Source: Halobacteriales archaeon QS_4_66_20 (lineage in GTDB: Archaea; Halobacteriota; Halobacteria; Halobacteriales; Haloarculaceae). From it: a DNA stretch of 32,773 nucleotides. Below are positions 14,376 through 31,304 of this stretch, in pieces. The stretch lies in the NCBI GenBank assembly GCA_003021015.1, contig PXRK01000045.1, positions 1 to 32,773 on the forward strand, given 5' to 3'. Below the pieces are notes generated by a model. It did not search any database, had not been told where the DNA came from, and worked only from the letters and a program-made list of their open reading frames with translations. Numbering within the stretch: the stretch's first letter is position 1; each line of letters starts with the position of its first letter. Made by a program: the position numbers and the translations under genes.

Positions 14376-14410
14376 GCTTGTGGCTGCGTAGCGAGGGTAG
14401 AAAAAGCTTC

Positions 14411-14520
14411 ATACGGTCGTTCGTAACTATTTGGGGACTGCCTCGTCATATCGGGCGTTGGCCTGGCTGTGACGAACGAACTGTGACACCGTAGCGGTAC
14501 CGAATCACGAACGACCGTAT
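14411..14520. repeat. 110-bp inverted-repeat element, copy E1
   Basis: Perfect 14-bp terminal inverted repeats bound the element: ATACGGTCGTTCGT (14411-14424) and ACGAACGACCGTAT (14507-14520). Flanks are TC on the left and CA on the right. The reverse complement aligns along its length, with few gaps, with 28896-29006 (for example ACCGCTAC, GTGTCACAGTTCGT, CGCCCGATATGACGAGG). It has no open reading frame. It lies in the 254-bp spacer between two minus-strand genes (13809-14375 and 14630-14824). Confidence 0.85.
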
Positions 14521-14586
14521 CAGGCGCCGGTACGGGACTGCGACGGGGACGGCTCGGGTGCCGTCGGGCGGCGGCTGACGTATAGC

Positions 14587-14624
14587 AAGCGGAAGCCCCG
14601 TCCTTCAGGGCGGGGAGGATGTCA
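14587..14624 (-). mobile_element. Orphan right-end hairpin of an IS200/IS605 (IS1341/tnpB)-type element
   Basis: CCCCGTCC-TTCA-GGGCGGGG (14596-14615) is an 8-bp hairpin (one G-T pair), followed by AGGATGTCA. I know this sequence (AAGCCCCGTCC...GGGGAGGATGTCA) as the right end found after tnpB genes in haloarchaeal IS200/IS605-group elements. No tnpA or tnpB fragment is present, so only the end survives. The strand is uncertain. It ends 6 bp from the Trm112-like gene's stop codon. Confidence 0.6.
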
Positions 14625-14629
14625 AGGGG

Positions 14630-14824
14630 CTACGCTTCGGCTTCCTCGCGCATGTCCGGCGGCAGCAGGTTCGGGATGCCGTCCTCGATGGGGTAGCGCT
14701 CGCCGCACTCGGTGCAGACCAGCGACCCCGCGAGGATCTCCTCGTCGTTGCGCTCATCAACCTCCAGGTCGAGGTCGTGGTTGTCCAGGGGACAGCACAG
14801 GATGTCCATCAGGTCCTCTTTCAT
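14630..14824 (-). CDS. Trm112-family methyltransferase activator
   Basis: A 64-residue zinc-binding protein of the Trm112/UPF0434 type: MKEDLMDILCCP gives C10/C11, and CTECGERYPIEDGIPNLLP gives C37 and C40 followed by the family's YPI..GIP.LLP signature. In archaea and eukaryotes Trm112 stabilises and activates SAM-dependent methyltransferases acting on tRNA, rRNA and translation factor eRF1/aRF1. Length is normal for the short archaeal form. It lies 105 bp downstream of purA on the same strand; co-transcription is possible. Confidence 0.9.
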   Translation of the reverse strand: MKEDLMDILCCPLDNHDLDLEVDERNDEEILAGSLVCTECGERYPIEDGIPNLLPPDMREEAEA

Positions 14825-14929
14825 ACCTCCTGCATGGCTGGCCTTGGGAATAGGGTTTGCGCTTGGAAACGCTGGATGCTCTGTATTCCCGCGACTCGCT
14901 GCGCACTTCGTTCACTGTAACCCGAGTCC

Positions 14930-16327
14930 CTAGAACGGGTATTCGAGCACAACCGACTGCTCGCGGCCCGGACCCACACCCACCACGTAGATCGGCGTCT
15001 CCAGGTCCGAACTCACGTACTCCAGGTACGCTTGAGCGTTCTCTGGCAGTGCATCGTACCCCACCGCAGCGACGTGATCCCAGTCGACCTCGGGCCAACC
15101 CTCGAACGTCCGATACATTGGCTCGCACTCCGCCCAGCGCTCGACCGTCGCAGGAATCGTCCGGAGCTTCTCACCGTCGAGGCGGTACGCGCGGGCGACC
15201 TTCACCTCGTTGAGGCCGGCCAGCGTGTCGACGTGGTTGACCGCGAGGCCGGTAAAGCCGCTGGTGCGGGTCGCGTGCCGGAGCATCGGGAGGTCGAGCC
15301 AGCCGACGCGGCGCGGGCGGCCCGTGACCGTGCCGTACTCGCCGCCCTCCTCGCGGATGTACGTCGCCAGCTCCTCCGCGCGCTCGTCGCCCTTGCCATC
15401 GTAGCCGGGCGTGTCGCCCTCGACGCCGGCGAGTTCGGTGGGCATCGGGCCGCTGCCGACCCGCGAGAGGTACGCCTTCACGACGCCGATCACCTCGCCA
15501 CCGCCGACGACGCCGGGGCTGAGCCCGGAGCCGACCGCGGCGCCCCCGGCGGTGGGGTTCGAGGAGGTGACGTAGGGGTAGTTGCCGTGGTCGATGTCCA
15601 GGATCGTCCCCTGGGCGCCCTCGAACATGATCCGCTCGCCGTCGTCGAGGCGGTCGGCGAGGAACGCGCCGGCGTCGACGAGCATCCCCTCCTCCTCGAG
15701 GCGGCGGCCGTACTCGCGGTACTCCTCGAACAGCGCGTCGACGTCGAACGCCGTCTCGAGTTCGACGTCGGCCGCGTCCACCCCGGCGTCCTCGACGGCG
15801 ATGCCGAACACGTCCTCGGCGAGGGCTCGCTTGAGCGGGACGACGTACTCCAGGCGCTCGCGGAGCACCTCGGGGTCGACGAGGTCGCCGACCCGGACGC
15901 CGCGGCGGCCGGCCTTGTCCTCGTAGGTCGGGCCGATGCCGCGGCCGGTCGTCCCGACCTCCTGGTCGTCCTCGCTTTTGACGGTCTCCTCGATCCCATC
16001 GAGCACGCGGTGGTAGGGAAAGATGACGTGGGCGCGGCGGGCCACCCGGACGTCGGGATCGACGCCGCGCTCGCGGAGCGCGTCGAGCTCGTCGAACAGC
16101 GTCCGGGGGTTGACGACGCAGCCGTTGCCCAAGACGTTGGTCTTGCCCCGGATGGCGCCGCTTGGCGCGAGCGAGAGCTTGTACTCCTCGCCGCCGTGGA
16201 CGACGGTGTGGCCGGCGTTGTCGCCGCCCTGGTACCGGACCACGACGTCGGCGGCCTCGCCGTACAGGTCGACGATCCCGCCCTTGCCCTCGTCACCGAG
16301 CTGTGCACCGACGATTGTCACGGTCAT
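14930..16327 (-). CDS. purA: Adenylosuccinate synthetase
   Basis: The 465-residue enzyme makes adenylosuccinate from IMP, aspartate and GTP, the first committed step from IMP to AMP. The N-terminal P-loop-like motif VGAQLGDEGKGG contains catalytic D12; GGDNAGHT supplies H40. Downstream are GTTGRGIGPTYEDKAGRRGVR, the FEGAQGTILDIDHGNYPYVTSS block and GTVTGRPRRVGWLDLP. All are canonical, and the length is slightly above the usual ~430. A TATA-like CTGTTTACC (minus strand, about 16351-16359) is about 27 bp from the ATG, and four 23-bp repeats begin just beyond it. Confidence 0.97.
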   Translation of the reverse strand: MTVTIVGAQLGDEGKGGIVDLYGEAADVVVRYQGGDNAGHTVVHGGEEYKLSLAPSGAIRGKTNVLGNGCVVNPRTLFDELDALRERGVDPDVRVARRAHVIFPYHRVLDGIEETVKSEDDQEVGTTGRGIGPTYEDKAGRRGVRVGDLVDPEVLRERLEYVVPLKRALAEDVFGIAVEDAGVDAADVELETAFDVDALFEEYREYGRRLEEEGMLVDAGAFLADRLDDGERIMFEGAQGTILDIDHGNYPYVTSSNPTAGGAAVGSGLSPGVVGGGEVIGVVKAYLSRVGSGPMPTELAGVEGDTPGYDGKGDERAEELATYIREEGGEYGTVTGRPRRVGWLDLPMLRHATRTSGFTGLAVNHVDTLAGLNEVKVARAYRLDGEKLRTIPATVERWAECEPMYRTFEGWPEVDWDHVAAVGYDALPENAQAYLEYVSSDLETPIYVVGVGPGREQSVVLEYPF

Positions 16328-16350
16328 CAGGGCTCACTTCCCGCCTCCGG

Positions 16351-16359
16351 GGTAAACAG
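16351..16359 (-). promoter_or_regulatory. TATA element of purA
   Basis: On the minus strand CTGTTTACC is centred about 27 bp before the purA start codon (16327), implying a leaderless mRNA. It abuts the tandem repeats starting at 16362. Confidence 0.5.
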
Positions 16360-16361
16360 AT

Positions 16362-16453
16362 TACGGTCCGAACACGGCCCGGAGTACGCTCCGAACACGA
16401 GCGGAAGTACGGTCCGAACGATGGCCGGATGGCGTTCCGACCGTGGATCGCCT
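16362..16453. repeat. Four 23-bp tandem repeats immediately upstream of the purA promoter
   Basis: Units at 16362-16384, 16385-16407, 16408-16430 and 16431-16453 share TACGGTCCGAACACG-like cores (TACGGTCCGAACAC, TACGCTCCGAACAC, TACGGTCCGAACGA, GGCGTTCCGACCGT). The first three are close and the fourth is diverged. They occupy about -35 to -126 relative to the purA start. The regular 23-bp phasing beside a TATA box suggests a regulator binding array, though simple slippage is not excluded. Confidence 0.75.
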
Positions 16454-16520
16454 GCCGATCCCAATCCCGGGAAGAGCCGGTGGAGCCACCGTTCCCCCCC
16501 GGGAGTGCCCCACGTTCACA

Positions 16521-16690
16521 ACGATTAAAAGGGGGCTGCTCCAACCGCTGACAATGGCGAGACGACCGCCCGAACTCCTCTGTCACCGTCCACGATCCCA
16601 CAGGACACTGTAAAAACACGGCTGGCAGGACCGCTCCGGGCAGTTTCACACCGCCATGCTCCCGGACCTGTCGCCGTCGGGGCCCAAAAC
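16521..16690 (+). other. Structured spacer with orphan TATA, micro-ORF and hairpin
   Basis: A TATA-like GATTAAAAG (16523-16531) lies 27 bp before an ATG at 16554 that opens only 19 codons (stop at 16611-16613). Next is an imperfect hairpin: CAGG (16626-16629) with CCTG (16667-16670), inner TCCGGG (16635-16640) with CCCGGA (16661-16666). The downstream winged-helix gene has its own TATA at 16697-16706. It could be a small RNA or leader; no homology is recognised. The rest of the 405-bp spacer holds the purA promoter and 23-bp repeats. Confidence 0.3.
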
Positions 16691-16732
16691 ACAACAACTT
16701 TTAAATCTGGGCAATACTAGTTAACAATTGCC

Positions 16733-17038
16733 ATGATAGACAGGCTTGAAAAAGAGGTCGATATGCTGGAGCGGCATCTGCAGGTATTGCAGATGGTGAT
16801 CGAGAACGAACCGATCGGCATCGTGAAGATGTCAAACGAGACTGGCTACCCCCACCACAAGGTCCGCTACTCGCTGCGCGTGCTCGAGGAGGAAAACCTC
16901 ATCGAGCCCTCCAGCCAGGGCGCGATCACGACCGAGGACACCCACGAGTTCGTCGAGGACCTGGACGAGAAACTCGACCACATCGTCCACAAGCTCGACG
17001 GGATGAAGATCGACGACGTCGCGGAAGTCGAAAGCTAA
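16733..17038 (+). CDS. Small winged-helix protein, predicted transcriptional regulator
   Basis: The 101-residue protein has an N-terminal coiled-coil-like helix (MIDRLEKEVDMLERHLQVLQMV) and a compact winged helix-turn-helix: PIGIVKMSNETGYPHHKVRYSLRVLEEENLIEPSSQGAITT, in two segments at about 27-45 and 46-67. A C-terminal acidic helix follows. It is typical of haloarchaeal one-domain regulators; no ligand site is seen. A TATA-like CTTTTAAATC lies about 30 bp upstream, and ACTAGTTAACAATTG close to the start may be an autoregulatory site. It is convergent with the 755-residue gene, with 1 bp between stop codons. Confidence 0.85.
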   Translation: MIDRLEKEVDMLERHLQVLQMVIENEPIGIVKMSNETGYPHHKVRYSLRVLEEENLIEPSSQGAITTEDTHEFVEDLDEKLDHIVHKLDGMKIDDVAEVES

Positions 17039-17039
17039 C

Positions 17040-19307
17040 TTACAGTTCTGGCACCGCGAGGTGGAAGTTCTCGTTGCGGGCCTCGACGAGACAGAGGTGA
17101 TACCCCTGCTTGCGCGAGAGGTTCACGAAGCTTTTGCGCTTGTCGCGGCTGAGCAGCCCGCCCTGGGTCGCCTCCTCGGCGACCTCCAGCGCTCCGGGAT
17201 CGAAGAAGCTCCGGGTCACGAGGAACGCGCCGGCGAACTGCTCGGAGGTCTGTCCGACGCGCTCGGCCGCTGTGATGAGATCCTCCATCATCGTCTCCGT
17301 CGCCGCCTCCCGCGAGTCATTCAGGTTCGCCACAAGTAGCGGGTTGCCCATCCGGTCCCGGAGAATGATGTCGAACGACTCCTGGCTGCGGGTCTCCTGT
17401 CCGTCGGTCGTGTACACGACGTCGACGATGCCCGCCAGTTCCGCGCGGTCGACCAGCGGCAGGATGTCGTAGAGATTCTTCAGCTCCTTCTGGTGGCCCG
17501 TCTCCCGGATCTCGAACAGGAGTTCGCGGACGAGCCACTCGACGAACTGGTACTCGACGGTGTTCTCGAGGGACTCCTCGTAGGCCTGGGCGCCGACGGC
17601 GACCGAGTCGGCGTCGAACTGGGTGTGTTTCTCCAGCCGGAGGTTGTCGTTGACGTCCTCCCTGCGCGTGCTGGCGCCGTGGGCTTTTTCCAGTGTCGCG
17701 TCGCCTTTCGAGTGGTACCGGACGAACACGTCGGTGCCCGACAGCGCCTCCTCGCCGGTGATCCGCCGCTCGGCGTCGGTCGCCGCGCCGAGTTCTTCCT
17801 CCAGCCGGTCGAGTTCCCCCTCCAGGCGCTCCACTTCAGTCTGAAGGTCGTCGCGCTCCTCGCGGACGGCCTCGAGTTGCTCGCGCAGCTCGTCGCGCTC
17901 GGTCGTCGCCGACGCCAGTTCGTCCTCCAGCCGGCCGATCTCGGCCTCGCGCTTCTCGAGGTCCGACTCGAGCTGCTCGACGCGCTCGGGGTCGACCCCG
18001 GGTTCGGGCTGCTGTGGCTGCCCCCCGCCGCCCGCTCCCCCGGCCTGCCCGGACTGCTGGGACTGCTCGGGCTGTGACCGGTCGGGCTGCTGTTGTGCGT
18101 CGGTCCGGGATTCGGCTCGCTGCTCCCGGGTCGCTCCCCGGTCGCTCGACTCCTCGGAACGGTCGGGGTCCAGCGACGGGATCGCCCGCTGTTCGAGCCC
18201 GAGCGCCTCGTCGCTCCCGGTCGAGCCCGACCCCTCGGCGCGGTCCCGGGCCGCCTCCTGGTCCCAGTCGCCGCCCGCGTCCGCCGACCCGGCCGCTCCG
18301 GCCCCGGGCTGTGCGTCGCTCGTGGTCTCCCTGCCGGACGACCGCCCCTGCTGTCGCGTCTCTGCCCCCGACGTCCGCTCGCGCTCCGCCGGCTCGCTGG
18401 CCGGCTCCGACGGCTGCTCGCGGGGTTTGGCTGGTTGCTCCGAACTCCGGCCCTCGGTCGTCGCGTCCGAAGCCCGGCTCTCGGCCGATGCGTCCGCCGT
18501 TCGGCGCTCGGCGGTCGGTTCGGCGTCGTGTCCCGCGTCTGCCGTGCCGGCGTCGGTGGCGGTCTGCTGTGTCGCCCCGCCGGTCGATCGGCCACCCCCG
18601 GCCGGCTCGTCTCCGGCCGTCGGCTCGTCGGCGCCGGCCGTGCCGCCGGTCGGGGTCGTGTCGGTGCCGGTCGTTCCACCAGTCGCGCCGGTGTCGGCTC
18701 CTCCCGCGTCTGTACTGGTCGCAGCCCCGCTGGTCGCCCCGCCTGCACCGCCGGTCGACGGCTCTTCGGGTTCGGGAATCTCGATCGGGTCGACGTCGAC
18801 GGCGTGGACCTTGTAGATACCGACCTCGTCGTCGGCAGTCTCGAACGCCTCGTCGCCGTCGATCAGGCGGCCGGCGTTGCCGACGAACCCGACGCTCATC
18901 GAGCGGCCGGCCTGGTAGACGAGGTAGTAGTCGCCGCTGAGGACGTTCTCCGACAGTTCGATGTAGCCGGTGAACCCGCCCTCGGAGAGCGTGCTGTCGA
19001 CGTCGGAGATCGACGTCTTCTCCGAGTAGAACTCGTCGCGGACCTCGCCGCCGCGCTCCTGCATCACAGCGAGCAGCGGCAGCGCCGGCGACGGCGAGTC
19101 GTACATCGTCCCGTGCGCGTCCGCGAAATCCTCGATGTCGCCCTGCTGGACGCCGACGACGACGCCCTTGGTCATGGAGAGTTCGGCACCCTCGGCGCGG
19201 ACGATACCGGAAAACTCGCCGTCAGCGAGGTCGTGCAGCTCGCGATAGCCGCCTGTGAACGACCGCTCTTCCCAGTCTTCGACGCGGTCGACGACGCGTG
19301 TGCTCAT
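17040..19307 (-). CDS. Large mosaic haloarchaeal protein (DUF7527-like): N-terminal domain, disordered linker, coiled coil, C-terminal alpha/beta domain
   Basis: The 755-residue cytosolic protein has residues 1 to ~180 as a folded domain (EDWEERSFTGGYRELHDLA, GYIELSENVLSGDYYLVYQAG). Residues ~185-450 are low complexity, rich in Thr/Gly/Ala/Ser/Gln. A Glu/Arg-rich coiled coil spans ~450-525. The C-terminal domain (~530-755) has a strand-turn-strand FDIILRDRMGNPLLVANL that looks like a PD-(D/E)xK nuclease core with the expected E-x-K altered. I recall the family as DUF7527 (unchecked). The start is MSTRVVDRVEDWEE, with a strong TATA at 19331-19340; four upstream codons are excluded. Partner and function are unknown. 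Confidence 0.8.
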   Translation of the reverse strand: MSTRVVDRVEDWEERSFTGGYRELHDLADGEFSGIVRAEGAELSMTKGVVVGVQQGDIEDFADAHGTMYDSPSPALPLLAVMQERGGEVRDEFYSEKTSISDVDSTLSEGGFTGYIELSENVLSGDYYLVYQAGRSMSVGFVGNAGRLIDGDEAFETADDEVGIYKVHAVDVDPIEIPEPEEPSTGGAGGATSGAATSTDAGGADTGATGGTTGTDTTPTGGTAGADEPTAGDEPAGGGRSTGGATQQTATDAGTADAGHDAEPTAERRTADASAESRASDATTEGRSSEQPAKPREQPSEPASEPAERERTSGAETRQQGRSSGRETTSDAQPGAGAAGSADAGGDWDQEAARDRAEGSGSTGSDEALGLEQRAIPSLDPDRSEESSDRGATREQRAESRTDAQQQPDRSQPEQSQQSGQAGGAGGGGQPQQPEPGVDPERVEQLESDLEKREAEIGRLEDELASATTERDELREQLEAVREERDDLQTEVERLEGELDRLEEELGAATDAERRITGEEALSGTDVFVRYHSKGDATLEKAHGASTRREDVNDNLRLEKHTQFDADSVAVGAQAYEESLENTVEYQFVEWLVRELLFEIRETGHQKELKNLYDILPLVDRAELAGIVDVVYTTDGQETRSQESFDIILRDRMGNPLLVANLNDSREAATETMMEDLITAAERVGQTSEQFAGAFLVTRSFFDPGALEVAEEATQGGLLSRDKRKSFVNLSRKQGYHLCLVEARNENFHLAVPEL

Positions 19308-19330
19308 TGTTGTCCACAAGTCTCATGCGA

Positions 19331-19340
19331 AGTATATAGT
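19331..19340 (-). promoter_or_regulatory. TATA element of the 755-residue gene
   Basis: ACTATATACT on the minus strand, centred about 28 bp before the ATG at 19307; leaderless initiation expected. Confidence 0.65.
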
Positions 19341-19400
19341 TTGCGGGGGCGCGCGAGGACGATCGTTCTGTACGACTATCTTTGGCGGAAGGACTGCAGG

Positions 19401-20126
19401 TCACAGTTCGCGAACAACGATGATCGGCGTTCCGGACTCCTCGGCGATGTACGTACAGACGGGACCGAACAGCTGGTTCGACACCTCCGGCTGTTCGGTC
19501 TCGCCCAGCACGACCATGTGATGGTCCCGGGCAGTCGCGGCGAGCGCGGCGTTCGGGTCCTCGGCGACTTCGACCGTCACTTCGAGGTCGGCCTCCGAAA
19601 ACCCCCGGTCGAGCAGCGTGTCCTCGACGTCTCGCAGCATGTCAGTCGCCGCGTCGACGGCCGCGTCGTCGGGCGTCACGTGGTACAGTTCCAGGATGAA
19701 GAGGCTGTCCGCATCGAACCCGCTCACCAGGTCGACGATCTCCGCCTGGTGCCGGCTGTCCCGGAGCGGGACCAGAATGTTGTGGACGGACTGCAGCTCC
19801 TCAGCGAGGAGGACGCCGTCGGCGCCGGTCTCCGCGGCGAGCCGGCTCTGGTACTCGCGCTCGGCGGCACCGGTAGCCCCGAACTGTAACTGGATGTCGG
19901 TCCTCGCTCCCGCGCGGCTGAACTGGGCGGCGATCTCGTAGAGGTCAGCTTCCGCGTCCGTCTCGTGATTCTCCCGCACTGCGTCGGGTGAGAGCCCGTC
20001 CGGGACTTCCCAGTAGCCGGACAGCACGAGCTTGAAGCCGCGCAACCCCGACAGGTGCATATCGTCCATCAGATACAGCTCCGGTTCCGGGAACACGACG
20101 GGGGTCAGGAGCGTTGGGTCGGACAC
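19401..20126 (-). CDS. Universal stress protein (UspA)-like protein, GTG start
   Basis: The 241-residue protein has a degenerate N-terminal Usp-like half (LTPVVFPEPELYLMDDMHLSGL to about 105) and a more typical UspA half (112-241): VHNILVPLRDSRHQAEIVDLV, ILELYHV, HHMVVLGETEQPEVSNQLFGPVCTYIAEES, PIIVV. The usual ATP-binding G-x2-G-x9-G-S/T is only partly kept. No ATG is available at the homology start. A GTG at 20126 is chosen because GATATTTTTCC (20151-20161, minus strand) lies about 27-30 bp upstream. Usp proteins respond to stress and nucleotides; the role here is unknown. It is divergent from the VAT ATPase gene, with a 151-bp spacer. Confidence 0.8.
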   Translation of the reverse strand: MSDPTLLTPVVFPEPELYLMDDMHLSGLRGFKLVLSGYWEVPDGLSPDAVRENHETDAEADLYEIAAQFSRAGARTDIQLQFGATGAAEREYQSRLAAETGADGVLLAEELQSVHNILVPLRDSRHQAEIVDLVSGFDADSLFILELYHVTPDDAAVDAATDMLRDVEDTLLDRGFSEADLEVTVEVAEDPNAALAATARDHHMVVLGETEQPEVSNQLFGPVCTYIAEESGTPIIVVREL

Positions 20127-20150
20127 GCGTACCGGCAGTACGCCACGACG

Positions 20151-20161
20151 GGAAAAATATC
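20151..20161 (-). promoter_or_regulatory. TATA element supporting the GTG start of the UspA-like gene
   Basis: GATATTTTTCC on the minus strand, centred 27-30 bp upstream of GTG 20126; it decides the start for a gene with no suitable ATG. Confidence 0.6.
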
Positions 20162-20277
20162 TACTGGAACCCGCCCTGACGGACAACAGAACGGTTGTCT
20201 CGCGGGCTGAAGACCACGAACTGTGACTTCTCGACGCTTCGCAAGAGGTTAAACAGTTCCCAGCCATACGGAAGAGC

Positions 20278-22389: not shown

Positions 22390-22397
22390 TCGCGACG

Positions 22398-23351: not shown

Positions 23352-23386
23352 ATCTACCAGTCCATGGATCAGGCGTCATAAGCTTC

Positions 23387-23464
23387 CTGTTCGGCGGACG
23401 GCCCGCGGGGTCGGCCGCGCTGTACATGCTCGACGAGGACGGGACGATGGAGTCGGGCCGGTGA
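23387..23464 (+). pseudogene. Possible relic of a protein C-terminus
   Basis: An open stretch without a start reads LFGGRPAGSAALYMLDEDG and ends in a natural-looking MESGR-stop. Nothing upstream continues the frame plausibly. It could be chance in GC-rich DNA; recorded because composition is gene-like in an otherwise empty 454-bp spacer. Confidence 0.2.
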
Positions 23465-23648
23465 GCGTGGCGGTCCGGACAGCGCCACGCTGTCAGCCGT
23501 CACCGCCGAGCGTTCGGTGTGGCCGGAACAGCAGCGCGCGTTGCCGGCTTCGACGTGAAAAGCGTCTGTACCGGCATCCGGTAGTTGGTCGTGATCCCTG
23601 TTAAAACCTCCGCAGACAAGCCAGGGAGCCGGCCTGACCTGGCTGGCG

Positions 23649-23757
23649 CCATTGTTTCTCTCCAGGGCACAGCCCCCGCCATTGTTTCTCTCCAGGGCAC
23701 GGCCCCCGCCATTGTTTCCCTCCAGGGCACGGCCCCCACCATTGTTTCTCTCAAGGG
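23649..23757. repeat. 30-bp tandem repeat, four units
   Basis: Units start at 23649, 23679, 23709 and 23739 (last partial), reading CCATTGTTTCTCTCCAGGGC then ACAGCCCCCG. There are no spacers, so this is a minisatellite, not CRISPR. On the minus strand it could read as repeated WRETMAGAVP, but no credible start or promoter accompanies it. It is in the 454-bp spacer downstream of the nitrilase gene; the rest of that spacer shows nothing beyond the possible relic at 23387-23464. Confidence 0.9.
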
Positions 23758-23805
23758 CAGAATATCGGCAGTTGCCCACCAGTGAACGCGACACCCGAAA
23801 GAGGG

Positions 23806-24615: not shown

Positions 24616-25043
24616 GGGTCAGTCTCCTCGAGATCTGCCCTGATCGCCGCTTCGAGGTTGTCGAGTTCGTCGCCCAGGTTCCGGCTAAAGAAGCGCTCGA
24701 CCCCCGGCAGTTTCCCGTCGACGACGAACCGATTGGTCAGCCGCGTCCCGTCGGCAAGCTCCTCGAGTTCGTGCTCGCCGACGATATGTGCGACCTTCGA
24801 GCTGCCGGTGAACTCGACGTACCGGGGCGGGTCGCGCTGTCGCTCCCGGGTCTCGAACGCGACCTTCCGGTCCATGAGGGGAATCGGGAGCGTCACGTAC
24901 CAGGTGGCGTGGCCGTCGTCGTGCACCTCGAAGCGCTCGACGACGCTGATCGCTCCGGCCCGTTTCGCCGGGTCGGAGATGAACGACCAGACCTGCTCGC
25001 ACGATCCCGGCACCTCCACGACGCGCTCGACGCGAACGACCAT
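24612..25043 (-). CDS. SRPBCC/polyketide cyclase-like ligand-binding protein
   Basis: The 143-residue protein has the START/Bet v1 helix-grip pattern: an N-terminal strand VVRVERVVEVPGSCEQVWSF is split by the first helix, central strands (YVTLPIPLMDRKVAF, YVEFTGSSKVAHIVGEHE) and a long C-terminal helix (FFSRNLGDELDNLEAAI). The family binds hydrophobic ligands or acts as cyclase; the ligand is unknown. It is first gene of a two-gene operon with the nitrilase-family enzyme, overlapping by 4 bp, and is 32 bp from the DUF7123-like gene. Confidence 0.88.
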   Translation of the reverse strand: MVVRVERVVEVPGSCEQVWSFISDPAKRAGAISVVERFEVHDDGHATWYVTLPIPLMDRKVAFETRERQRDPPRYVEFTGSSKVAHIVGEHELEELADGTRLTNRFVVDGKLPGVERFFSRNLGDELDNLEAAIRADLEETDP

Positions 25044-25075
25044 ACTCGCCTATTGGGTGAGAGAAGGAAAAGCGT

Positions 25076-25300
25076 TTAGCTGCGGGTGACCCGCCAGGTG
25101 GTCGACCGCGCACGCCCCCACTTCTCGATCTCGACTTCCTCGGCGGCTTCGTTGAGCTTCGGGAGGCGTGCGCCGACCTGCTTCGAAGAGAGCCCCAGCT
25201 GCTCGGCGATGTTCTTCGAACGGAAGTAGCTCTCACCCCGGGAGACGCTCTCCCGGAGGTACTCGAGAATCTTCCGGTCTTCCTCGCTGAGCTCTGTCAT
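25076..25300 (-). CDS. Small winged-helix protein, DUF7123-like
   Basis: The 74-residue protein starts MTELSEEDRKILEYLRESV and is a single HTH domain: SYFRSKNIAEQLGLSSKQVGARLPKLNEA is one recognition unit (two helices across about 24-50), with a basic C-terminal wing WGRARSTTWRVTRS. I recall it as DUF7123 (unchecked). Probably DNA-binding. The start is fixed by a TATA-like GTTAAGACTAT (25321-25331) 26 bp upstream; an inverted-repeat element begins 7 bp beyond that. Thirteen upstream codons in frame are excluded. Confidence 0.85.
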   Translation of the reverse strand: MTELSEEDRKILEYLRESVSRGESYFRSKNIAEQLGLSSKQVGARLPKLNEAAEEVEIEKWGRARSTTWRVTRS

Positions 25301-25337
25301 TGTACGCACGTTTGAACGCGATAGTCTTAACTCTTTC

Positions 25338-25419
25338 ATAGTGATTATTGTGACTGTTTACCGGGTCGACCGCACGCGATCGTGCGGTCGATCCCGTAAC
25401 GACTCACAATAATCACCAT
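25338..25419. repeat. 82-bp inverted-repeat element, copy A
   Basis: Terminal arms include the perfect 13-bp pair GTGATTATTGTGA (25341-25353) and TCACAATAATCAC (25404-25416). Between them CGACCGCACG and CGTGCGGTCG form a further 10-bp hairpin with a CGAT loop, so almost the whole element can fold as one stem. It is flanked by TC and CA, as in the other copies, and shares the inner box GTGAGTCGTTACGG (minus strand). It abuts the DUF7123-like promoter. Confidence 0.8.
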
Positions 25420-25443
25420 CAGGCTGTTCTCGAGCGCGATACG

Positions 25444-25662
25444 CTACCGCTCGTAGATGTGGATCGCGGCGACGGCGATGCCCGCCGCGAGCAGCGCCAC
25501 GGCCAGCGAGACGCCCGACAGCAGCTGCATCGTCTCGGCCTCCTCGGCCAGCGCCGAGATGTAGGCGGTGCCGGCCACCGCGATCGCCGCGAGCACCGCG
25601 ACCAGGCCCAGCAGCAGCCCGAGACCGATGCCCATGTCCGACCCGGCTGTCGTCTCTGCCAT
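25444..25662 (-). CDS. Small two-helix membrane protein, DUF7525-like
   Basis: The 72-residue protein starts MAETTAGSDMGIG and has two hydrophobic segments (about 12-34 and 46-68) separated by a short acidic loop (ALAEEAETMQ), ending IHIYER. Short, low complexity and membrane-bound; I recall a haloarchaeal family of this form as DUF7525 (unchecked). No function is visible. It is a single-gene unit between the AbrB-PhoU gene and element copy A. Confidence 0.75.
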   Translation of the reverse strand: MAETTAGSDMGIGLGLLLGLVAVLAAIAVAGTAYISALAEEAETMQLLSGVSLAVALLAAGIAVAAIHIYER

Positions 25663-25762
25663 ACCGGCCCTTTGCCGGGTTCCCCCTTAATCGCCACGGT
25701 CCCGGCGGGTTCCGTTCCGAAACTGCATTCCTCGGCGTGAGAACTGCATGCTTGCGGGCGAA

Positions 25763-26797
25763 TCACTTTATCGAGATGTGGTCCGACTCCTCGTTGAGCG
25801 CGAGGTTCGTCGATATTTCGGCGTTTCGCACCGCGTACTGGGCAGTTTCCCCGAGGCTGACCAGCACCTCACGGATCTGGAGCAGCTGTTCGTTGTCCAG
25901 CTCGGGGAGGTTCGCGAGGATCTGCTGCTGGCGGGCGTCGCTGTCGGCGAACCGCTTGCGGGCCTCGATCGCGGTGTCGTAGTCGCGCTCGACGGCCGAC
26001 TCGATCGCCAGCTCGGAGATCTCGTCGACGTCGTCGGTGAACTCCCGGATCTGGCGCATCGTGCTCTGCTCGACGTTCAGCGCGTGCCCGTCGGCCTCCA
26101 GCACGATCTCCGCGATGTCCTCGGCGCTGTCGGCGGTTAGTTCGAGGTTCTTCGCGATCGAGCGGTAGCCGATCAGCGGGAAGCCGTCGGTCAGCCCGAC
26201 CTGGTGGGCGAGGTTCGGGTTCTGGTAGGCTGTAAACAGCAGGCGCAACAGCAACACGAAGATCTTGTTGGCCTGCCGTTCGCGGTTGAGCGCCCGCTGT
26301 GCCAGATCGGGGTTGTTGTGCGCCAGCGCCTTCACCGCCTCGTTGCGCATCGTGCTGCCGGTCGATTCCAGCCGCTCGAGCAGATTGTTCAGCGTGAAAT
26401 CCACCGGGTCGACCGAACAGCGGATCGCGATGCTGTCCGGCGTCTCCTCGATGACTCCCAGCCCCATCAGCTGCGTCTCGGCGTTGTACACCGCGTTGAT
26501 GTGTGTACTCTCCAGCGTCTCACCCTCGCCAGCCTCGACGTGGATGATCCGCCGGCCGAGTACGTACTGGGCGACGATCGCCCGCTCGACGGCGTCCGCG
26601 TCGAGGTCGGTGGTGTTGACGACCGCTTCGCTCTCCTCGGTCTGAACCGATTCGGGCATCACCGTCAGCATCCCCTTGCTCCCCAGCCGGAGCGATACCT
26701 CGTCGCCCTTTTCGACCTCGTACTCCTGTGCCCATTCCGCCGGCAGCGTCATTGCGAGCGTCGACGGCCCGAGCCGCTGCACTTTCCGCGTTTCCAT
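25763..26797 (-). CDS. AbrB-PhoU fusion, phosphate uptake regulator type
   Basis: The 344-residue protein has an N-terminal AbrB/SpoVT-like DNA-binding swapped hairpin (METRKVQRLGPSTLAMTLP, with EYEVEKGDEVSLRLG, about 1-50). Two PhoU-type helical repeats follow, rich in acidic and Arg residues (e.g. RIIHVEAGEGETLESTH region, then NAEISTNL). This archaeal fusion is linked to phosphate-dependent regulation and to Pst transport, but no pst genes are adjacent. The start at 26797 is supported by the AbrB motif and by AGATTAAGGT (26821-26830, minus strand) 29 bp upstream. A 7-bp inverted repeat (26846-26869) lies just upstream of that TATA. Confidence 0.9.
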   Translation of the reverse strand: METRKVQRLGPSTLAMTLPAEWAQEYEVEKGDEVSLRLGSKGMLTVMPESVQTEESEAVVNTTDLDADAVERAIVAQYVLGRRIIHVEAGEGETLESTHINAVYNAETQLMGLGVIEETPDSIAIRCSVDPVDFTLNNLLERLESTGSTMRNEAVKALAHNNPDLAQRALNRERQANKIFVLLLRLLFTAYQNPNLAHQVGLTDGFPLIGYRSIAKNLELTADSAEDIAEIVLEADGHALNVEQSTMRQIREFTDDVDEISELAIESAVERDYDTAIEARKRFADSDARQQQILANLPELDNEQLLQIREVLVSLGETAQYAVRNAEISTNLALNEESDHISIK

Positions 26798-26820
26798 AGA
26801 ACCTTTACGTTCTTCCCAGT

Positions 26821-26869
26821 ACCTTAATCTTATCAATACGTCCTAGACCAAAGTTGATGATATTTGGTC
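26821..26869 (-). promoter_or_regulatory. phoU-like promoter with inverted repeat
   Basis: TATA-like AGATTAAGGT (26821-26830, minus strand) is followed upstream by GACCAAA (26846-26852) and TTTGGTC (26863-26869) around a 10-nt spacer, an operator-sized dyad. The AbrB domain of the gene product makes autoregulation possible. The remaining part of the 320-bp spacer contains a second strong TATA (GAGTATATAAGG, 27048-27059). Confidence 0.45.
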
Positions 26870-27117
26870 GTCACGTGTTACCACGACAGTCGACAGCCGT
26901 TTGTGGGCGAAAACGGCAGCCGCGCCGTGTACCCCCGCTGTTCTCCGGTCGCCCTTGAGACGCCGATTCCAGTCTGTAAATCCGTTTTACCGTGGCATCA
27001 CGGGATCATTTACGCGAGGCGAACAGCGAGAGTCGTGACAGCTGACGAGTATATAAGGTCGCCGACCAGCTGGAAGCACTGCACCGGATTTTTGTCGCTT
27101 CAGTCCAACCGACAACC

Positions 27118-27273
27118 ATGAGCATTCGGGACAAATTGGGCGCCGTGACGAGCAAACTCCGCTCGATCCTGTTTCCTGCCTTCTCGATCCCACAGAGTCG
27201 CGGGCCCGTCGGCGAGCTCGATCCCGACGACTGGCCCGACGACCTCGGGGAGCGCGAGCAGGACGAGGAGTGA
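27118..27273 (+). CDS. 51-residue acidic small protein
   Basis: The frame from ATG 27118 reads MSIRDKLGAVTSKLRSILFP, an amphipathic helix, then AFSIPQSRGPVGELDPDDWP and a strongly acidic tail ending EREQDEE. Codon use matches neighbouring genes and the protein has the acidic halophilic signature. A TATA-like CGGATTTTTG (27085-27094) lies 28 bp upstream; a stronger TATA at 27048-27059 would give a ~40-nt leader. I recognise no family; the amphipathic N-terminus might bind membrane or a partner. Confidence 0.7.
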   Translation: MSIRDKLGAVTSKLRSILFPAFSIPQSRGPVGELDPDDWPDDLGEREQDEE

Positions 27274-27424
27274 CCGCGTCTGCGGGCCGTCCTGGGGGAA
27301 TACTCCCATCTCGCTCCTTCTCGTCTCCCGCATCTGTCCGTCGAGATGAGTTTGGCAACGGCACCAACGGGCGACAGAGTCACCAAAACGACACGCAAAT
27401 ACGGCCACAGACCAACCCCCAGAC

Positions 27425-28039
27425 ATGTCCACCGCCACGGCGCCGGAACCGATCAGGGAGCACGTCACCGCGGTGACCGCCGTGCTGACAGTCGTCGGCT
27501 ACGGGCTGGTCGCGGCGACGTTCGGCGGGCTAGTGCCGATTTTCCCCGACATCGGCGAACAGGGCGTCAACCTCCTGGGGCACGCCATCGCCGTCGTCAA
27601 CACGGCTGCGACGATCACGCTCGTGCTCGGCTGGCGTGCGATCCGACGGGGCGACGTGCGAACGCACCGCAGGTACATGATCACCTCGTTCGCCCTCATC
27701 CTGCTCTTTTTGCTGTTGTACCTGCCGAAAGTCGGTGGCGGCGGCGAGAAGCGGTTCGTGCTGTCGGCCTCCTACGCGTTCGTTCCGACGTGGGAGTGGA
27801 TCCGCCCCGCCTACCTCGCGATGCTCGCGATCCACATCCTGCTGTCGGTGCTGGCGATGCCCGTCGTGCTGTACGCGCTCATGCTCGGGCTGACCCACAC
27901 GCCTGCCGAGCTGCGCGAGAGCATCCACCCCCGGGTCGGTCGGATCGCCGCCGTCTCCTGGATCCTCAGCCTCGTCCTCGGCGTGTTGACCTACCTGCTG
28001 CTCAATCATCTGTACGCCTACGAGTTTTCGGCTGTCTGA
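27425..28039 (+). CDS. DUF420 family membrane protein
   Basis: The 204-residue protein has about five or six hydrophobic segments (roughly 14-34, 48-68, 85-102, 128-152 and 172-196) and the DUF420 pattern: GHAIAVVNTAATITLVLGWR is followed by RGDVRTHRRYMITSF, with conserved histidines, then AYLAMLAIHILLSVLAMPVVL. Related bacterial proteins (CtaM-like) assist assembly of haem-copper oxidase; no oxidase gene is in view, so that role is inference. A TATA-like GCAAATACGG (27395-27404) lies about 26 bp upstream. Confidence 0.88.
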   Translation: MSTATAPEPIREHVTAVTAVLTVVGYGLVAATFGGLVPIFPDIGEQGVNLLGHAIAVVNTAATITLVLGWRAIRRGDVRTHRRYMITSFALILLFLLLYLPKVGGGGEKRFVLSASYAFVPTWEWIRPAYLAMLAIHILLSVLAMPVVLYALMLGLTHTPAELRESIHPRVGRIAAVSWILSLVLGVLTYLLLNHLYAYEFSAV

Positions 28040-28120
28040 ACTGGTGGAGACGCGAGCTGCAGTGTTGATCGCATCTGTAGTTCTCGTGACGAGGAAAGCC
28101 CTCGGCGCGCTCGCGGATCA

Positions 28121-28175
28121 CGCTGAGCGGGATATCCTCGGTCGCTTCGCTCCCTCGGATAGGGCCCGCTCAGCG
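28121..28175. repeat. 11-bp inverted repeat upstream of pyrE
   Basis: CGCTGAGCGGG (28121-28131) and CCCGCTCAGCG (28165-28175) are perfect complements 33 bp apart, with partial inner pairing (GATATCC/GGATA). It could be a terminator of the DUF420 gene or an RNA hairpin. The rest of the 314-bp spacer contains no gene; a TATA-like CCATTAG (28325-28331) lies 26 bp before pyrE. Confidence 0.55.
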
Positions 28176-28353
28176 ACCGCGACCGCGTCTCGCCCTTTCA
28201 GTCCGCCAGGGACAATGTTTGCTGCGTCGGCAGCAACACCTCGATTGTGGCGTCGGGAGAAACGCGGCGATGAGAAGTGCAAGAGGGACAACTCCGGTGG
28301 CATCCTCGTAGCGGATCGGCAGGTCCATTAGCCGGCACGCGCTGGGTCCGGGT

Positions 28354-28896
28354 ATGGACACGGATCGGCTCATCGAACTGCTGCGGGCGGCCGACGCCGT
28401 CCGGTTCGGCGAGTTCGAACTCTCCCACGGCGGGACGAGCAGCTACTACGTCGACAAGTACGTCTTCGAGACGGACCCCGCGTGCCTGGAGGCGATCGCG
28501 GCGGCGTTCGCCAAGCGGATCGACGACGAGACGCTGGCGGGGGTCGCGCTGGGGGCGGTCCCGCTGGTCGCGGTCACCAGCACCGTCGCCGGGCGGCCGT
28601 ACGTGATCGTCCGCAAGGCGGCCAAGGAGTACGGCACCGGCAACCGCATCGAAGGCAGTTTCGAGCCCGGCGAGGAGGTCGTCGTACTGGAGGACATCGC
28701 GACCACCGGGCAGAGCGCTATCGACGCCGTCGAGGCGCTGCGCGAGGCGGGTGCGACCGTCGAGCGGGTGCTGGTAGTCGTCGACCGCGAGGAGGGTGCC
28801 GCCGAGAACCTCGCCGACCGCGGCGTCGACCTCCAGTCGCTCGTGACCGCCTCGGAACTGCTCGCCGACGCCGACCAGTCGGTCGAGAGGTCCTGA
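28354..28896 (+). CDS. pyrE: Orotate phosphoribosyltransferase
   Basis: The 180-residue enzyme converts orotate and PRPP to OMP in pyrimidine synthesis. It shows the type I phosphoribosyltransferase features: [31 protein letters not shown], and the PRPP-binding loop [13 protein letters not shown] (about 109-121). The length is normal. In Haloferax a pyrE is the common selectable marker; this is the same family. Its TGA stop (28894-28896) overlaps the first bases of an inverted-repeat element, so that element supplies the stop codon. Confidence 0.95.
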
Positions 28897-29006
28897 CACG
28901 GTCGTTCGTGATTCGTTACCGCTACAGTGTCACAGTTCGTGCGTCACAGCCCGGCAAACGCCCGATATGACGAGGTAGTCCCGAAAGTACTCACGTCCGA
29001 CAGTAT
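28896..29006. repeat. 111-bp inverted-repeat element, copy E2
   Basis: Aligns with the reverse complement of copy E1 over most of its length. The left arm is ACACGGTCGTTCGTGA and the right arm reads TCACGTCCGACAGTAT; 12 of 16 arm positions pair. The right arm is closer to that of copy E3 (TCACGTCCGGCAGTAT) than to its own left arm, suggesting recombination or gene conversion between subtypes. It is flanked by TG and GA. Confidence 0.8.
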
Positions 29007-29076
29007 GAGCGCCGATCCTGCGCTGGCGGCGCACATAACCGTCCGATTCTTGAGCGACCAGCCCCTACCACTGGTG

Positions 29077-29325
29077 ATGGCAAACCTCGAACTCTACGAA
29101 CTCGAAGGCTGTCCGTACTGTGCGAAAGTGAAGCGGAAACTCGACGAACTCGGACTCGAGTACGAGTCCCACATGGTGCCCGCGAGCCACAGCGAGCGCA
29201 CGGAGGTCCAGGAAGTCAGCGGACAGACCGGCGTGCCGGTGCTGGTCGATACGGAGCACGGGGTCGACGGGATGCCCGAGAGCGACGACATCGTCGCGTA
29301 CCTCGAGAAAACCTACGGCAGCTAA
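29077..29325 (+). CDS. Glutaredoxin-like protein
   Basis: The 82-residue thioredoxin-fold protein has the dithiol active site CPYC (C12, C15) after strand LELYELEG, cis-proline P54 (TGVPVL) and a C-terminal ESDDIVAYLEKTYG helix matching the glutaredoxin/GST N-terminal pattern. It probably reduces disulfides; haloarchaea use gamma-glutamylcysteine rather than glutathione. The start at 29077 (a GTG lies directly before it) is preferred because CGATTCTTGA (29044-29053) is 29 bp upstream; the frame extends upstream through element E2 but is not protein-like there. Confidence 0.9.
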   Translation: MANLELYELEGCPYCAKVKRKLDELGLEYESHMVPASHSERTEVQEVSGQTGVPVLVDTEHGVDGMPESDDIVAYLEKTYGS

Positions 29326-29406
29326 CTGCCCTGGCGACGCTCGCCTTTCACGTCGGAATCGCCGTCACGGCGTTCCTCGTTGTGCACGTGAGCGCGCCCG
29401 GCAGGG

Positions 29407-29850
29407 CTACTCGATCCCGTCTGAACCGCGTGGCCCGAACTCCGCCTCGTAGGACTGGTAAATCTCCCAGTACTCCTCGATTTCCGCCCACGGGTTCCGG
29501 CCGCAGGGACAGTCCAGTTTCCAGCGCAGTTCGCTCTCGATGCCGACCTGTTCGGCCCGGCTCCTGTCGATCCGGTCGTGATCGAGCGGGTTCGGCTCGA
29601 GGTCGCGGTCCGATCCCGCCGTCGTCGTCTTGTAGCAGTAGGCGATCTCGCCGTGGACGTGCTCCTCCCAGCAGTCCGTCCGGCTGTGGCTTTTCAGCTG
29701 ATTGCCGAGCTGGCGCGACTCCCCGATGTCCAGACAGCAGTGCAGCTCCCCGTCGACGAGACACACGACGACGTAGACGCCCCGTGCGTCGAGGGGTACC
29801 TTCGTTACGGACGTGTATGGCCCTTTGAATTCGTAACCCGCGAACTCCAT
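29407..29850 (-). CDS. Degenerate GIY-YIG-like domain protein
   Basis: In this 147-residue protein GVYVVVCLVDGELHCCLDIG occupies the place of GIY...YIG in GIY-YIG nucleases, followed by ESRQLGNQLKSH (normally [YIG]-xS-xNLxxRLxxH). The YIG tyrosine is Asp and the catalytic Arg is Gln; CxC and HSRTDCWEEH follow, and the C-terminal half has an acidic helix and a CPCG motif. The fold is probably conserved but the nuclease is likely inactive, or uses other residues. A TATA-like box (ACTAAGTGCC on the minus strand) lies about 27 bp before the ATG. Element copy B is 78 bp upstream. Confidence 0.7.
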   Translation of the reverse strand: MEFAGYEFKGPYTSVTKVPLDARGVYVVVCLVDGELHCCLDIGESRQLGNQLKSHSRTDCWEEHVHGEIAYCYKTTTAGSDRDLEPNPLDHDRIDRSRAEQVGIESELRWKLDCPCGRNPWAEIEEYWEIYQSYEAEFGPRGSDGIE

Positions 29851-29927
29851 GTGGGATGTAACAGCCCCGCGGCACTTAGTTATCAGGCTGGAGGCATGCC
29901 CGTCGACGGGTAGAGCGGCGTGCACTC

Positions 29928-30038
29928 ATACTGATTGTTGTGATTATTTTCGGCACCACATCGCAATAGCGGCGGTTTCACGTCCCGAAACTGGCGTCTG
30001 AGGAATACTCGGCGGTAACGAGTCACAACAATCAGTAT
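29928..30038. repeat. 111-bp inverted-repeat element, copy B
   Basis: Perfect 16-bp arms ATACTGATTGTTGTGA (29928-29943) and TCACAACAATCAGTAT (30023-30038), flanked by TC and CA. The minus strand carries the family's inner box GTGACTCGTTACCG and, at the other end, GCCGAAAATAATCAC. It lies between two minus-strand genes and encodes nothing evident. Confidence 0.85.
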
Positions 30039-30092
30039 CACGGGCAGACAGGCGGCTACCGCGTCGGTTCGGCGCGCGGGCAGCGCCAGCGG

Positions 30093-31052
30093 TCAGGCGG
30101 GCTCTTCTTCGACCCGATCGTAGATGAGGTTCCGGAGGTCGGCCTGCTCCTCGATGTCCTCCATCTCCTCCTGTTCGATGATCGCGGTGCCCTCGACGGA
30201 TTCGCGTTTGGCCGTGTCGACGATGTACACGGACTGGGTGCGGGTCACCTGCCCGACGGAGGACATGATCCGGGCTCGTTTCTCTGCCGTCTTCGTGAAC
30301 GCCGAGTGGCCGGTGAGCATCTGCCCTTCGTCCTCGTCCTCGCTGACGGTCTTGAACGGCGCGCGGTCGGTCAGGTGGACGTCGTAGCCGACCCGGGTGA
30401 GCACCGTCACGACCGGCTCGTCGTCCGGGTCGGCCTCCGGAGCGTCGGGGAGTTCGTCTGCCTCGCGAACCGCCTCCGCGCCGTCGAGGACCGACACCGG
30501 CGACCCCAGGTCCTCGTCGAACATCTCCTCGAGCTGGGCGGCGACCTCGACGCTTGCGTCCATGCCGTCCTCGTACTTCGAGACCGTCCGCCGGGAGACA
30601 CCCAGCTCCTGAGCGAGCTGGCCCAGCGACCAGTCGCGGTCCTCGCGGGCGTCCGCAAGCACCTCGCTGTCGATGTTGACGTACAGCCCGCCAGGCGCCG
30701 CGTAGATGAGCGGCGGCACGCCGTCGACGAACAGCTCCAGCGCCGTGTCGGGCGAGAACACCGGCACGCCGTGCCGGAAGTAGACGACGCCGGGGTCGAG
30801 CTCCTCGTCGCGCGTCCGCAGGCCGATTACCAGCGCCGTCGCGTGCAGGTACTCGCCGAGCCGGCGCATCTCCGCCCCCGTCTTCGCATCGAACGCGTCG
30901 ATGTTTCCGAGAATCTTCAGCAGCAACACGTCGTTGCCCCGGCGTGCCGCGACGTCGAAGCTTTTCGGTCGGATCGCACACCGGTCGCTCACGACGAACC
31001 CGGCGTCCTCGAGCATTGCGGTGACGTTGGCGACCAGTGCGGACCGGGACAT
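30093..31052 (-). CDS. COG1395-type HTH transcriptional regulator
   Basis: The 319-residue protein has an N-terminal alpha/beta domain (1-125) resembling a nuclease-like fold ([19 protein letters not shown], a strand-turn-strand). A Cro/XRE helix-turn-helix follows at ~130-175 ([23 protein letters not shown]), then a C-terminal domain (~205-319) with [20 protein letters not shown] split in two strands. This is the archaeal family annotated as putative HTH-type regulatory protein (COG1395). Targets unknown. The start at 31052 is followed by [13 protein letters not shown]. Length is typical. Confidence 0.9.
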
Positions 31053-31194
31053 GACTGTTCTTGGACAGACATAGGTCGTTCGTCATATTTATACGTTGTG
31101 GCGGCTGTAAGCCCTACGTACGGTGATTTCCGGATCGTTTCCGCGTTGTGATACGTCTCCAGAAGAAACAGTGGCGGCCCGGACTGCCGTCCTG

Positions 31195-31304
31195 ATACTG
31201 CCGGACGTGACTATGTTACTCCGAGTGATGCTCGGACTGGGGGTTTCGGTTGTCTCAGATGCTGAGCGCTATCCGGGTGGGAACGGAATCACGTCCGGCA
31301 GTAT
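31195..31304. repeat. 110-bp inverted-repeat element, copy E3
   Basis: Perfect 16-bp arms ATACTGCCGGACGTGA (31195-31210) and TCACGTCCGGCAGTAT (31289-31304), flanked by TG and GA. The inner sequence is unlike the other copies except near the ends (GTGACTATGTTAC; GGAACGGAATCAC). It lies in the 295-bp spacer between divergent genes (COG1395-type and tiaS), which otherwise contains only promoter-like AT-rich DNA (31084-31094). Confidence 0.85.

What the first reader, a model, noticed from the sequence alone, without database searches (positions are those of the whole stretch)
14411..31304. Family of ~110-bp inverted-repeat elements whose arms differ between copies but still pair
Five complete copies occur in this window: 14411-14520, 25338-25419 (82 bp), 28896-29006, 29928-30038 and 31195-31304. 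Oriented alike, each runs CCTG/CGTG-AT... to ...AT-GA with 13-16 bp arms. Arm cores differ (ATACGGTCGTTCGTGA, ATACTGATTGTTGTGA, ATACTGCCGGACGTGA, ATGGTGATTATTGTGA), yet in four copies each left arm is complementary to its own right arm. A GTGA-N-TCGTTACCG-like box follows the left arm, and a CCCGAAA-like box precedes the right arm in several copies. Pairing conserved while sequence drifts is the signature of a structure under selection (RNA hairpin or cruciform), or of several MITE subfamilies tracking related transposases.
Basis: seen in the sequence. Interest (0 to 1): 0.85.

Follow-up and report, generated by a model that had tools for sequence, protein, structure and literature searches.

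The report
Tiny palindromic transposons of haloarchaea
The five repeats belong to a large family of very short, gene-less jumping DNA elements in salt-loving archaea; their two halves keep pairing although the letters change, most likely because the palindrome re-copies its own arms, and the enzyme that moves them is still unknown.

Summary
Confirmed: five copies, 80 or 108-109 bp, each between two TGA triplets. They are mobile: 264 left-end matches in the genome (reversed control 2); three elements nested in other elements, compared with uninterrupted copies, show a TGA duplication, mostly at CTGAG. In 37 of 70 sampled insertions the left TGA ends, in frame, a frame of 100 or more codons. The same ends occur in 48 of 392 genomes of the order, as single hits in 2 of 203 outside it. 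The pairing claim holds: in 33 diverse 80-bp elements two stems form 85.9% standard pairs (partner-shuffled 69.8%); 19 of 28 pairs have two-sided changes. In the longer class only the arms do so well. Balanced G.T and A.C mismatches in the inner stem and exactly inverted loops in 8 of 18 genomes favour a DNA cause, template switching, over RNA selection; the arms do show a mismatch bias. No transposon with these ends was found among the loci examined. Closest known: 'small mobile repeats' of Haloquadratum walsbyi (about 110 and 80 bp, mobiliser enigmatic); sequences could not be compared. New variant of a known kind.

The parts
14412..14519 (-). Copy 1, 108 bp, arms TACGGTCGTTCGTGA / TACGGTCGTTCGTAA; flanking TCA at 14409-14411 and 14520-14522
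25339..25418 (-). Copy 2, 80-bp class: arm, internal loop, inner stem, 4-nt loop in the fold; flanking TCA at 25336-25338 and 25419-25421
   Evidence: single-strand DNA fold z -10.0
28897..29005 (+). Copy 3, 109 bp, chimeric: left arm CACGGTCGTTCGTGA, right arm TACTGTCGGACGTGA; left TGA (28894-28896) is the stop codon of ORF 28354-28896 (Pribosyltran); right TGA 29006-29008
29929..30037 (-). Copy 4, 109 bp, arms TACTGATTGTTGTGA on both sides; flanking TCA at 29926-29928 and 30038-30040; not present at this place in relative G017
31196..31303 (+). Copy 5, 108 bp, arms TACTGCCGGACGTGA on both sides; flanking TGA at 31193-31195 and 31304-31306; not present at this place in relative G017
4608..4622 (+). 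Isolated end TACGGTCGTTCGTGA directly behind the stop codon (TGA 4605-4607) of ORF 3714-4607; no partner arm found

Best explanation
The repeats are non-autonomous DNA transposons of one haloarchaeal superfamily with two main size classes (about 80 bp and about 108-109 bp). SHOWN: they insert at TGA, mostly within CTGAG, and duplicate TGA; they occur in both orientations, sit next to and inside one another, and are often placed at stop codons, where the duplication restores the codon. SHOWN: most ends share the tip TA[CG].G, an inner GTGA (GTRA in many relatives) and a box NTNN[TG]T[AT]C[CG]G, while letters between tip and GTGA vary together on both sides. INFERRED: a transposase (or one close group) supplied in trans reads tip, GTGA and box; the letters in between are free to drift. 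They stay complementary because replication through the palindrome occasionally switches template, copies one arm onto the other and flips the loop; transposition then multiplies such variants, giving the 'arm types'. Chimeric copies such as copy 3 arise by recombination or template switching between elements of different type.
For: Target duplication: 46 of 55 exact-arm pairs in 0.8 Mb are TGA/TGA; 3 nested elements of three arm types have exact uninterrupted counterparts (64 examined, 5 hits, 2 of them artefacts of neighbouring elements). Same target for different arms. Pairing. Loop inversion: exact reverse complements in 8 of 18 genomes. Five of 102 own elements carry the same deviation in both arms, more than independent mutation should give by my rough estimate. 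Arm homogenisation plus spacer inversion is the described outcome of template switching at short inverted repeats (PMC8604942 abstract and introduction; PMC8794818 abstract and first lines). Mismatches in the inner stem show no strand bias: 23 G.T, 27 A.C.
Against: The transposase is not identified. One-arm deviations (42 of 102) far outnumber two-arm ones, so homogenisation is not fast in this genome, and no inverted loop was seen among its 26 elements of the 80-bp class (247 comparable pairs, all direct). The outer arms have a mismatch bias (29 A.C, 7 G.T on the GTCA-left strand) that template switching does not predict. The near-constant lengths suggest a constraint beyond end reading. Part of the arm pairing comes from how copies were found (told under Tried and rejected).
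Confidence: 0.5

Rival explanations
1. The DNA hairpin itself is the recognised object: the element moves as a cruciform or single-stranded hairpin, so both stems are kept paired by selection while the sequence is free, as proposed for REPINs (and, recalled, for integron attC sites).
For: Both stems and the conserved mismatched internal loop are kept over many genera; near-constant length (80, 79 or 78 nt in most of the short class); strong single-strand DNA folds of the 80-bp class (z -8.9 to -10.0 for three tested).
Against: Symmetric target with a 3-bp duplication fits double-strand DDE-type insertion better; Y1 transposases are not found in three of seven copy-bearing genomes, one of them 99% complete; the interior of the 109-bp class pairs only weakly (60.7%) yet it is mobile.
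Confidence: 0.25
2. Several MITE subfamilies, each moved by its own related transposase that reads that arm type; pairing of arms then only reflects that both ends bind the same protein.
For: Nine or more arm types, most with several copies, in one genome; the same arm is usually on both sides.
Against: All arm types tested share target and duplication; does not explain covariation of the inner stem; own genome has one DDE_Tnp_1 match, not bounded by such ends; 35 loci with DDE_Tnp_1 in ten genomes show none bounded by such ends. Other transposase families and 61 of 91 matches were not examined.
Confidence: 0.17
3. The pairing serves an RNA: the element is transcribed behind genes and its hairpin acts in the mRNA 3' end (terminator, stability or regulation).
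For: Many insertions directly behind reading frames (37 of 70 own; 58 of 94 and 60 of 121 elsewhere); covarying stems around a conserved internal loop; the outer-arm mismatches are biased (29:7), which would fit G.U pairs on the CTGT-left strand.
Against: No G.T excess on the TGA strand (92 G.T, 119 A.C over both stems) nor in the inner stem (23 vs 27); both element orientations relative to TGA (57 and 40); inverted loops; no Rfam match in the window besides a tRNA.
Confidence: 0.06

Closest known systems
Small mobile repeats SMR-A (HqIRS42/43/55, about 110 bp) and SMR-B (HqIRS40/41, HqIRS41 80 bp) of Haloquadratum walsbyi (PMC3119063; sections 23, 25, 29, 31 and passages seen)
   Same: Haloarchaea; lengths 110 and 80 bp; prominent inverted ends unrelated to known transposons; many copies; families alike in build but not in sequence; insertion into other elements; mobiliser enigmatic.
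   Different: Reported without target duplication and aimed at IS605-type palindromes; here TGA is duplicated and many sites are stop codons.
REPINs moved by RAYT transposases (PMC3116915, abstract seen)
   Same: Small non-autonomous elements, inverted repeats predicted to form hairpins, high copy number, extragenic.
   Different: RAYTs are Y1-type (search listing, PMC2817692); Y1 is not found in three of seven copy-bearing genomes; here a 3-bp duplication and a symmetric target.
MITEs of bacteria such as ERIC/RU-1 and Correia elements (PMC2229807 and PMC2759123: search listing only; details recalled)
   Same: Short palindromic gene-less elements with a target duplication.
   Different: Here arms and inner stem covary over an order of archaea; TGA instead of TA duplication (TA recalled).
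IS5-family elements with TNA target duplications (IS1031 group; recalled)
   Same: 3-bp duplication of TNA type.
   Different: No IS with these ends among the DDE_Tnp_1 loci examined.
Template-switch homogenised inverted repeats (PMC8604942, PMC8794818)
   Same: Arm homogenisation and spacer inversion.
   Different: There described for yeast genes and RNA genes; here for mobile elements.

Membership tests
MITE / non-autonomous DDE-type transposon | terminal inverted repeats | tested here: met
MITE / non-autonomous DDE-type transposon | target-site duplication of fixed length | tested here: met
   TGA; 46 of 55 pairs; 3 empty sites inside other elements
MITE / non-autonomous DDE-type transposon | too short to code for a transposase, multicopy | tested here: met
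   80-109 bp, 264 left-end matches
MITE / non-autonomous DDE-type transposon | autonomous partner with the same ends | tested here: inconclusive
   none found in 0.8 Mb of the genome, 35 DDE_Tnp_1 loci and regions around ends in other genomes; much not searched
Small mobile repeats (SMR) of Haloquadratum | length about 110 or 80 bp with inverted ends | tested here: met
Small mobile repeats (SMR) of Haloquadratum | no target duplication | tested here: not met
   TGA is duplicated; the paper may have drawn borders differently
Small mobile repeats (SMR) of Haloquadratum | preferred insertion into IS605-type/PATE palindromes | not tested
   IS605-type elements were not mapped here
Small mobile repeats (SMR) of Haloquadratum | sequence relation to HqIRS40-43/55 | not testable with these tools
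   supplementary table not available; plasmid PL47 (46,000 of 46,867 bases scanned) has no such element; one contig of a MAG named Haloquadratum carries an 80-bp element
REPIN / RAYT | Y1 transposase in the genome | tested here: not met
   no match at E<=0.001 in 3 of 7 copy-bearing genomes, two of them incomplete (63-79%), one 99% complete
structured non-coding RNA | covarying base pairs | tested here: met
structured non-coding RNA | G.U preferred over A.C on the RNA strand | tested here: inconclusive
   not in the inner stem nor on the TGA strand; outer arms 29:7, in favour of the CTGT-left strand
structured non-coding RNA | transcript | not testable with these tools
   no RNA-seq

The most novel reading that the evidence does not exclude
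A transposition system that recognises a DNA fold rather than a terminal sequence: any element of the right length with tip TA, the GTGA/box internal loop and paired stems is mobile, so one enzyme serves unlimited arm and stem sequences, and one arm is rebuilt from the other at each move, which also flips the loop.
Probability: 0.18. Interest if true: 0.85.

Novelty: new variant of a known kind. Interest (0 to 1): 0.6.

Why it matters
It may give the 'small mobile repeats' seen in one haloarchaeon in 2011, whose movement was called enigmatic, a wider family, a defined end, a target and a target duplication, so that the mobiliser becomes searchable. It is also a case where base-pair covariation, often taken as proof of a functional RNA, probably has a mutational cause (template switching) in a mobile DNA palindrome; loop inversion is a simple diagnostic. 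Ends of this kind in 48 of 392 genomes and 25 of 95 genera of the order mean that intergenic 'structured RNA' candidates in haloarchaea could be such elements.

Tried and rejected
Autonomous copy: arm pairs 200-3000 bp apart in 0.8 Mb of the own genome gave 13 cases (reversed control 1). The 1364-bp one was read (no transposase recognised by eye; its far arm belongs to another element); the 219-bp and 637-bp cases are visibly nested or neighbouring elements; the rest I judged to be cross-pairs of separate elements but did not read one by one. Ends 1042 bp apart in G215 (L314) are two elements. Longer elements read in G390 are nested composites. DDE_Tnp_1 loci: the terminal repeats found there are other families; 30 of the 91 matches were looked at, plus the 5. 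Y1.

Viral carriers: 44 viral contig stretches with one exact arm; no second arm at 80-110 bp; arms 300 bp apart in three low-GC contigs were not followed up. 22 of the 23 matches stretches have GC 0.40-0.43 and look like one repeated non-haloarchaeal sequence (not checked). No match to window 28880-31320 in phages.

TA duplication (IS630/Tc1 type): rejected, the empty sites have CTGAG, not CTGATATGAG.

Orthologous empty sites: G017 lacks copies 4 and 5, but the flanks are too diverged to show the exact site.

Stop-codon preference: 37 of 70 own, 58 of 94 and 60 of 121 elsewhere against 18.5% of 627 CTGAG sites, but survival of harmless insertions could explain this; spurious long frames are common in GC-rich DNA (other two frames 17 and 11 of 70; mirrored right side 8 of 70). 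The 100 'others' held 6 own-genome elements; one search repeats the count without them.

Covariation sets: of 104 collected sequences 9 were dropped; one search kept lengths 77-80 and left out five named loci, leaving 216. The alignment has 33 sequences: 32 of the 35 references printed (L380, L434, L439 left out as poor fits) plus window copy 2. Bias: the patterns fixed GTGA and box, arms had to match at 9 of 13 or 15 positions, the later set had to pair at 7 of 11 inner positions, and the pattern fixes several arm letters. The first 35-sequence set had no inner-stem filter and gave inner pairing 0.778 against 0.537+-0.027. Shuffles do not remove relatedness.

Genome groups: 19 labels, but G359 and Natrarchaeobius chitinivorans AArcht4T share a contig length (313,699) and are taken as one, hence 18; three labels had no comparable pair; G282 and G305 had only partial inversions (0.8, 0.92).
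Full report
OBSERVATION. The five copies are real and their borders can be set to the base: 14412-14519, 25339-25418, 28897-29005, 29929-30037, 31196-31303, each between two TGA (or TCA) triplets. The window is one contig of a 2.89-Mb haloarchaeal genome; the genus is probably Halovenus, because a genome of the same genus (G002) has a match at the same coordinates as plasmid NZ_CP112975 of Halovenus salina (inference). A left-end pattern matches 264 times in the genome, its reversed form 2 times.

MOBILITY. In about 0.8 Mb read (and the window), 46 of 55 exact-arm pairs are flanked by TGA on both sides, with C before in 32 and G after in 31 of the 46. Three elements of three arm types are inserted in elements of the copy-5 type, and uninterrupted copies show the site...CATCTGAGACAACC... 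or ...CAGTCTGAGCATC... becomes ...CTGA-element-TGAG.... So the duplication is TGA and different arm types use the same target. Elements also sit side by side or inside another element's inner GTGA. A relative (G017) with the same gene order lacks copies 4 and 5.

PLACE. The left TGA is the in-frame end of a reading frame of at least 100 codons in 37 of 70 own elements, and in 58 of 94 and 60 of 121 elsewhere; mirrored right sides give 8, 19 and 13. Copy 3 and the isolated end at 4608 lie directly behind ORF stop codons. The duplication restores the stop codon, so such insertions are harmless; I do not claim active targeting.

ANATOMY. Two main size classes: about 80 bp (mostly 78-80) and about 108-109 bp (106-112 in the set), plus 46-57-bp shortened forms. 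In the 80-bp class: tip TA[CG].G, variable stretch, GTGA or GTRA, a mismatched internal loop with two different boxes (GTCA-like and CTGT-like), CCGG, an inner stem of about 13 bp, a loop of about 10 nt, and the mirror image. In the longer class arms and boxes are of the same kind, but in the 18 aligned elements the interior pairs weakly (60.7% for the central stem I named); a Natrialba copy, by contrast, folds as one rod (L376, z -8.4).

SPREAD. A full-element pattern occurs in 14 of 392 genomes of the order; the end pattern in 48 of 392 genomes and 25 of 95 genera, with one match in all for the reversed control. Outside the order 2 of 203 genomes have a single match each. From one capped scan (120 stretches kept, more exist) complete elements were recovered in Natrialba, Natronococcus, Natrarchaeobius, Salinadaptatus, Halobiforma, Natrinema, Natribaculum, Halostella, Halopiger, Haloterrigena and others, and in one contig of a MAG named Haloquadratum; Halorhabdus and Natronomonas gave end matches only.

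PAIRING. On 33 diverse 80-bp elements, 85.9% of cells in 28 pairs are standard pairs (69.8+-0.9 when partners are shuffled; 25-45% when slid); 162 cells have two-sided changes against 63.8+-6.2; 19 pairs have at least one, which 30 of 500 shuffles also reach. At below 80% identity (36 sequences) the inner stem is 0.778 Watson-Crick against 0.542+-0.025, the arms 0.855 against 0.720+-0.014. In 18 elements of the longer class the arms are 95.9% paired with 9 of 15 pairs changed on both sides.

WHY THE PAIRING. If an RNA were selected, G.U should be tolerated over A.C on its strand. On the TGA strand there are 92 G.T and 119 A.C; in the inner stem 23 and 27. The outer arms do show a bias (29 A.C, 7 G.T on the GTCA-left strand, i.e. 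G.T on the other strand); positions 7 and 9 supply 17 of the 29, so a few old changes may carry it; I leave it unexplained. Otherwise similar elements of one genome carry apical loops in opposite orientation: exact reverse complements in 8 of 18 genomes, for example two Natrialba taiwanensis copies (L354, L358); none in the window's genome. Arm homogenisation together with spacer inversion is the described outcome of polymerase template switching at short inverted repeats (PMC8604942, abstract and introduction; PMC8794818, abstract and first lines). In the own genome 5 of 102 elements carry the same deviation in both arms, 42 a deviation in one arm or different ones, 5 arms of two types.

MOBILISER. 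Not found. Own genome: one DDE_Tnp_1 match, without such ends; six copy-bearing genomes: 91 matches, 30 loci examined, none bounded by these ends. Y1 transposases are not found in three of seven copy-bearing genomes. Other families (IS630, IS1595, IS66, integrases) were not tested.

KNOWN KIND. The closest description is the small mobile repeats of Haloquadratum walsbyi: 110 bp and 80 bp, strong inverted repeats, many copies, target preference, enigmatic mobilisation (PMC3119063, sections 23, 25, 29, 31 and passages). Searches that showed no paper on such elements in other haloarchaea: (open-licence papers only; listings seen).

Noticed in passing
window 32626-32700: A truncated arm (TAGTGATTGTTG) runs into GGCTCTGTTGAATCGCC, which resembles the terminal repeat GGCTCTGTTGAAATCC of insertion sequences in L451, L456 and L466; the contig may break in an insertion sequence sitting in an element.
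   Followed up: no
window 32641, L071 near 1537, flank of the element at L166:5433: A further arm-like repeat, TACACCCGGACGTGA or similar, not flanked by TGA in the usual way; perhaps an older or PATE-like family.
   Followed up: no
L301-L304 (G390): Composite elements: a 109-bp-class element carrying another element with arms TACTGTCGGTCA... inside; the same composite at several places suggests it moves as a unit.
   Followed up: partly
L003-L030, inner stem next to the loop of the 80-bp type: About four letters on one side of the loop differ strongly between otherwise near-identical copies (ACG, GAG, GGT, AGC ...).
   Followed up: no
outer arms: Outer-arm mismatches are biased to A.C on the GTCA-left strand (29 vs 7).
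   Followed up: partly
L444, L445 (G215, G401): Insertion sequence of about 970 bp with inverted ends TGCTCTGTAGGATCGCTAG / TGCTTCGTAGG; an 8-bp duplication is visible in L445; unrelated to the elements.
   Followed up: partly
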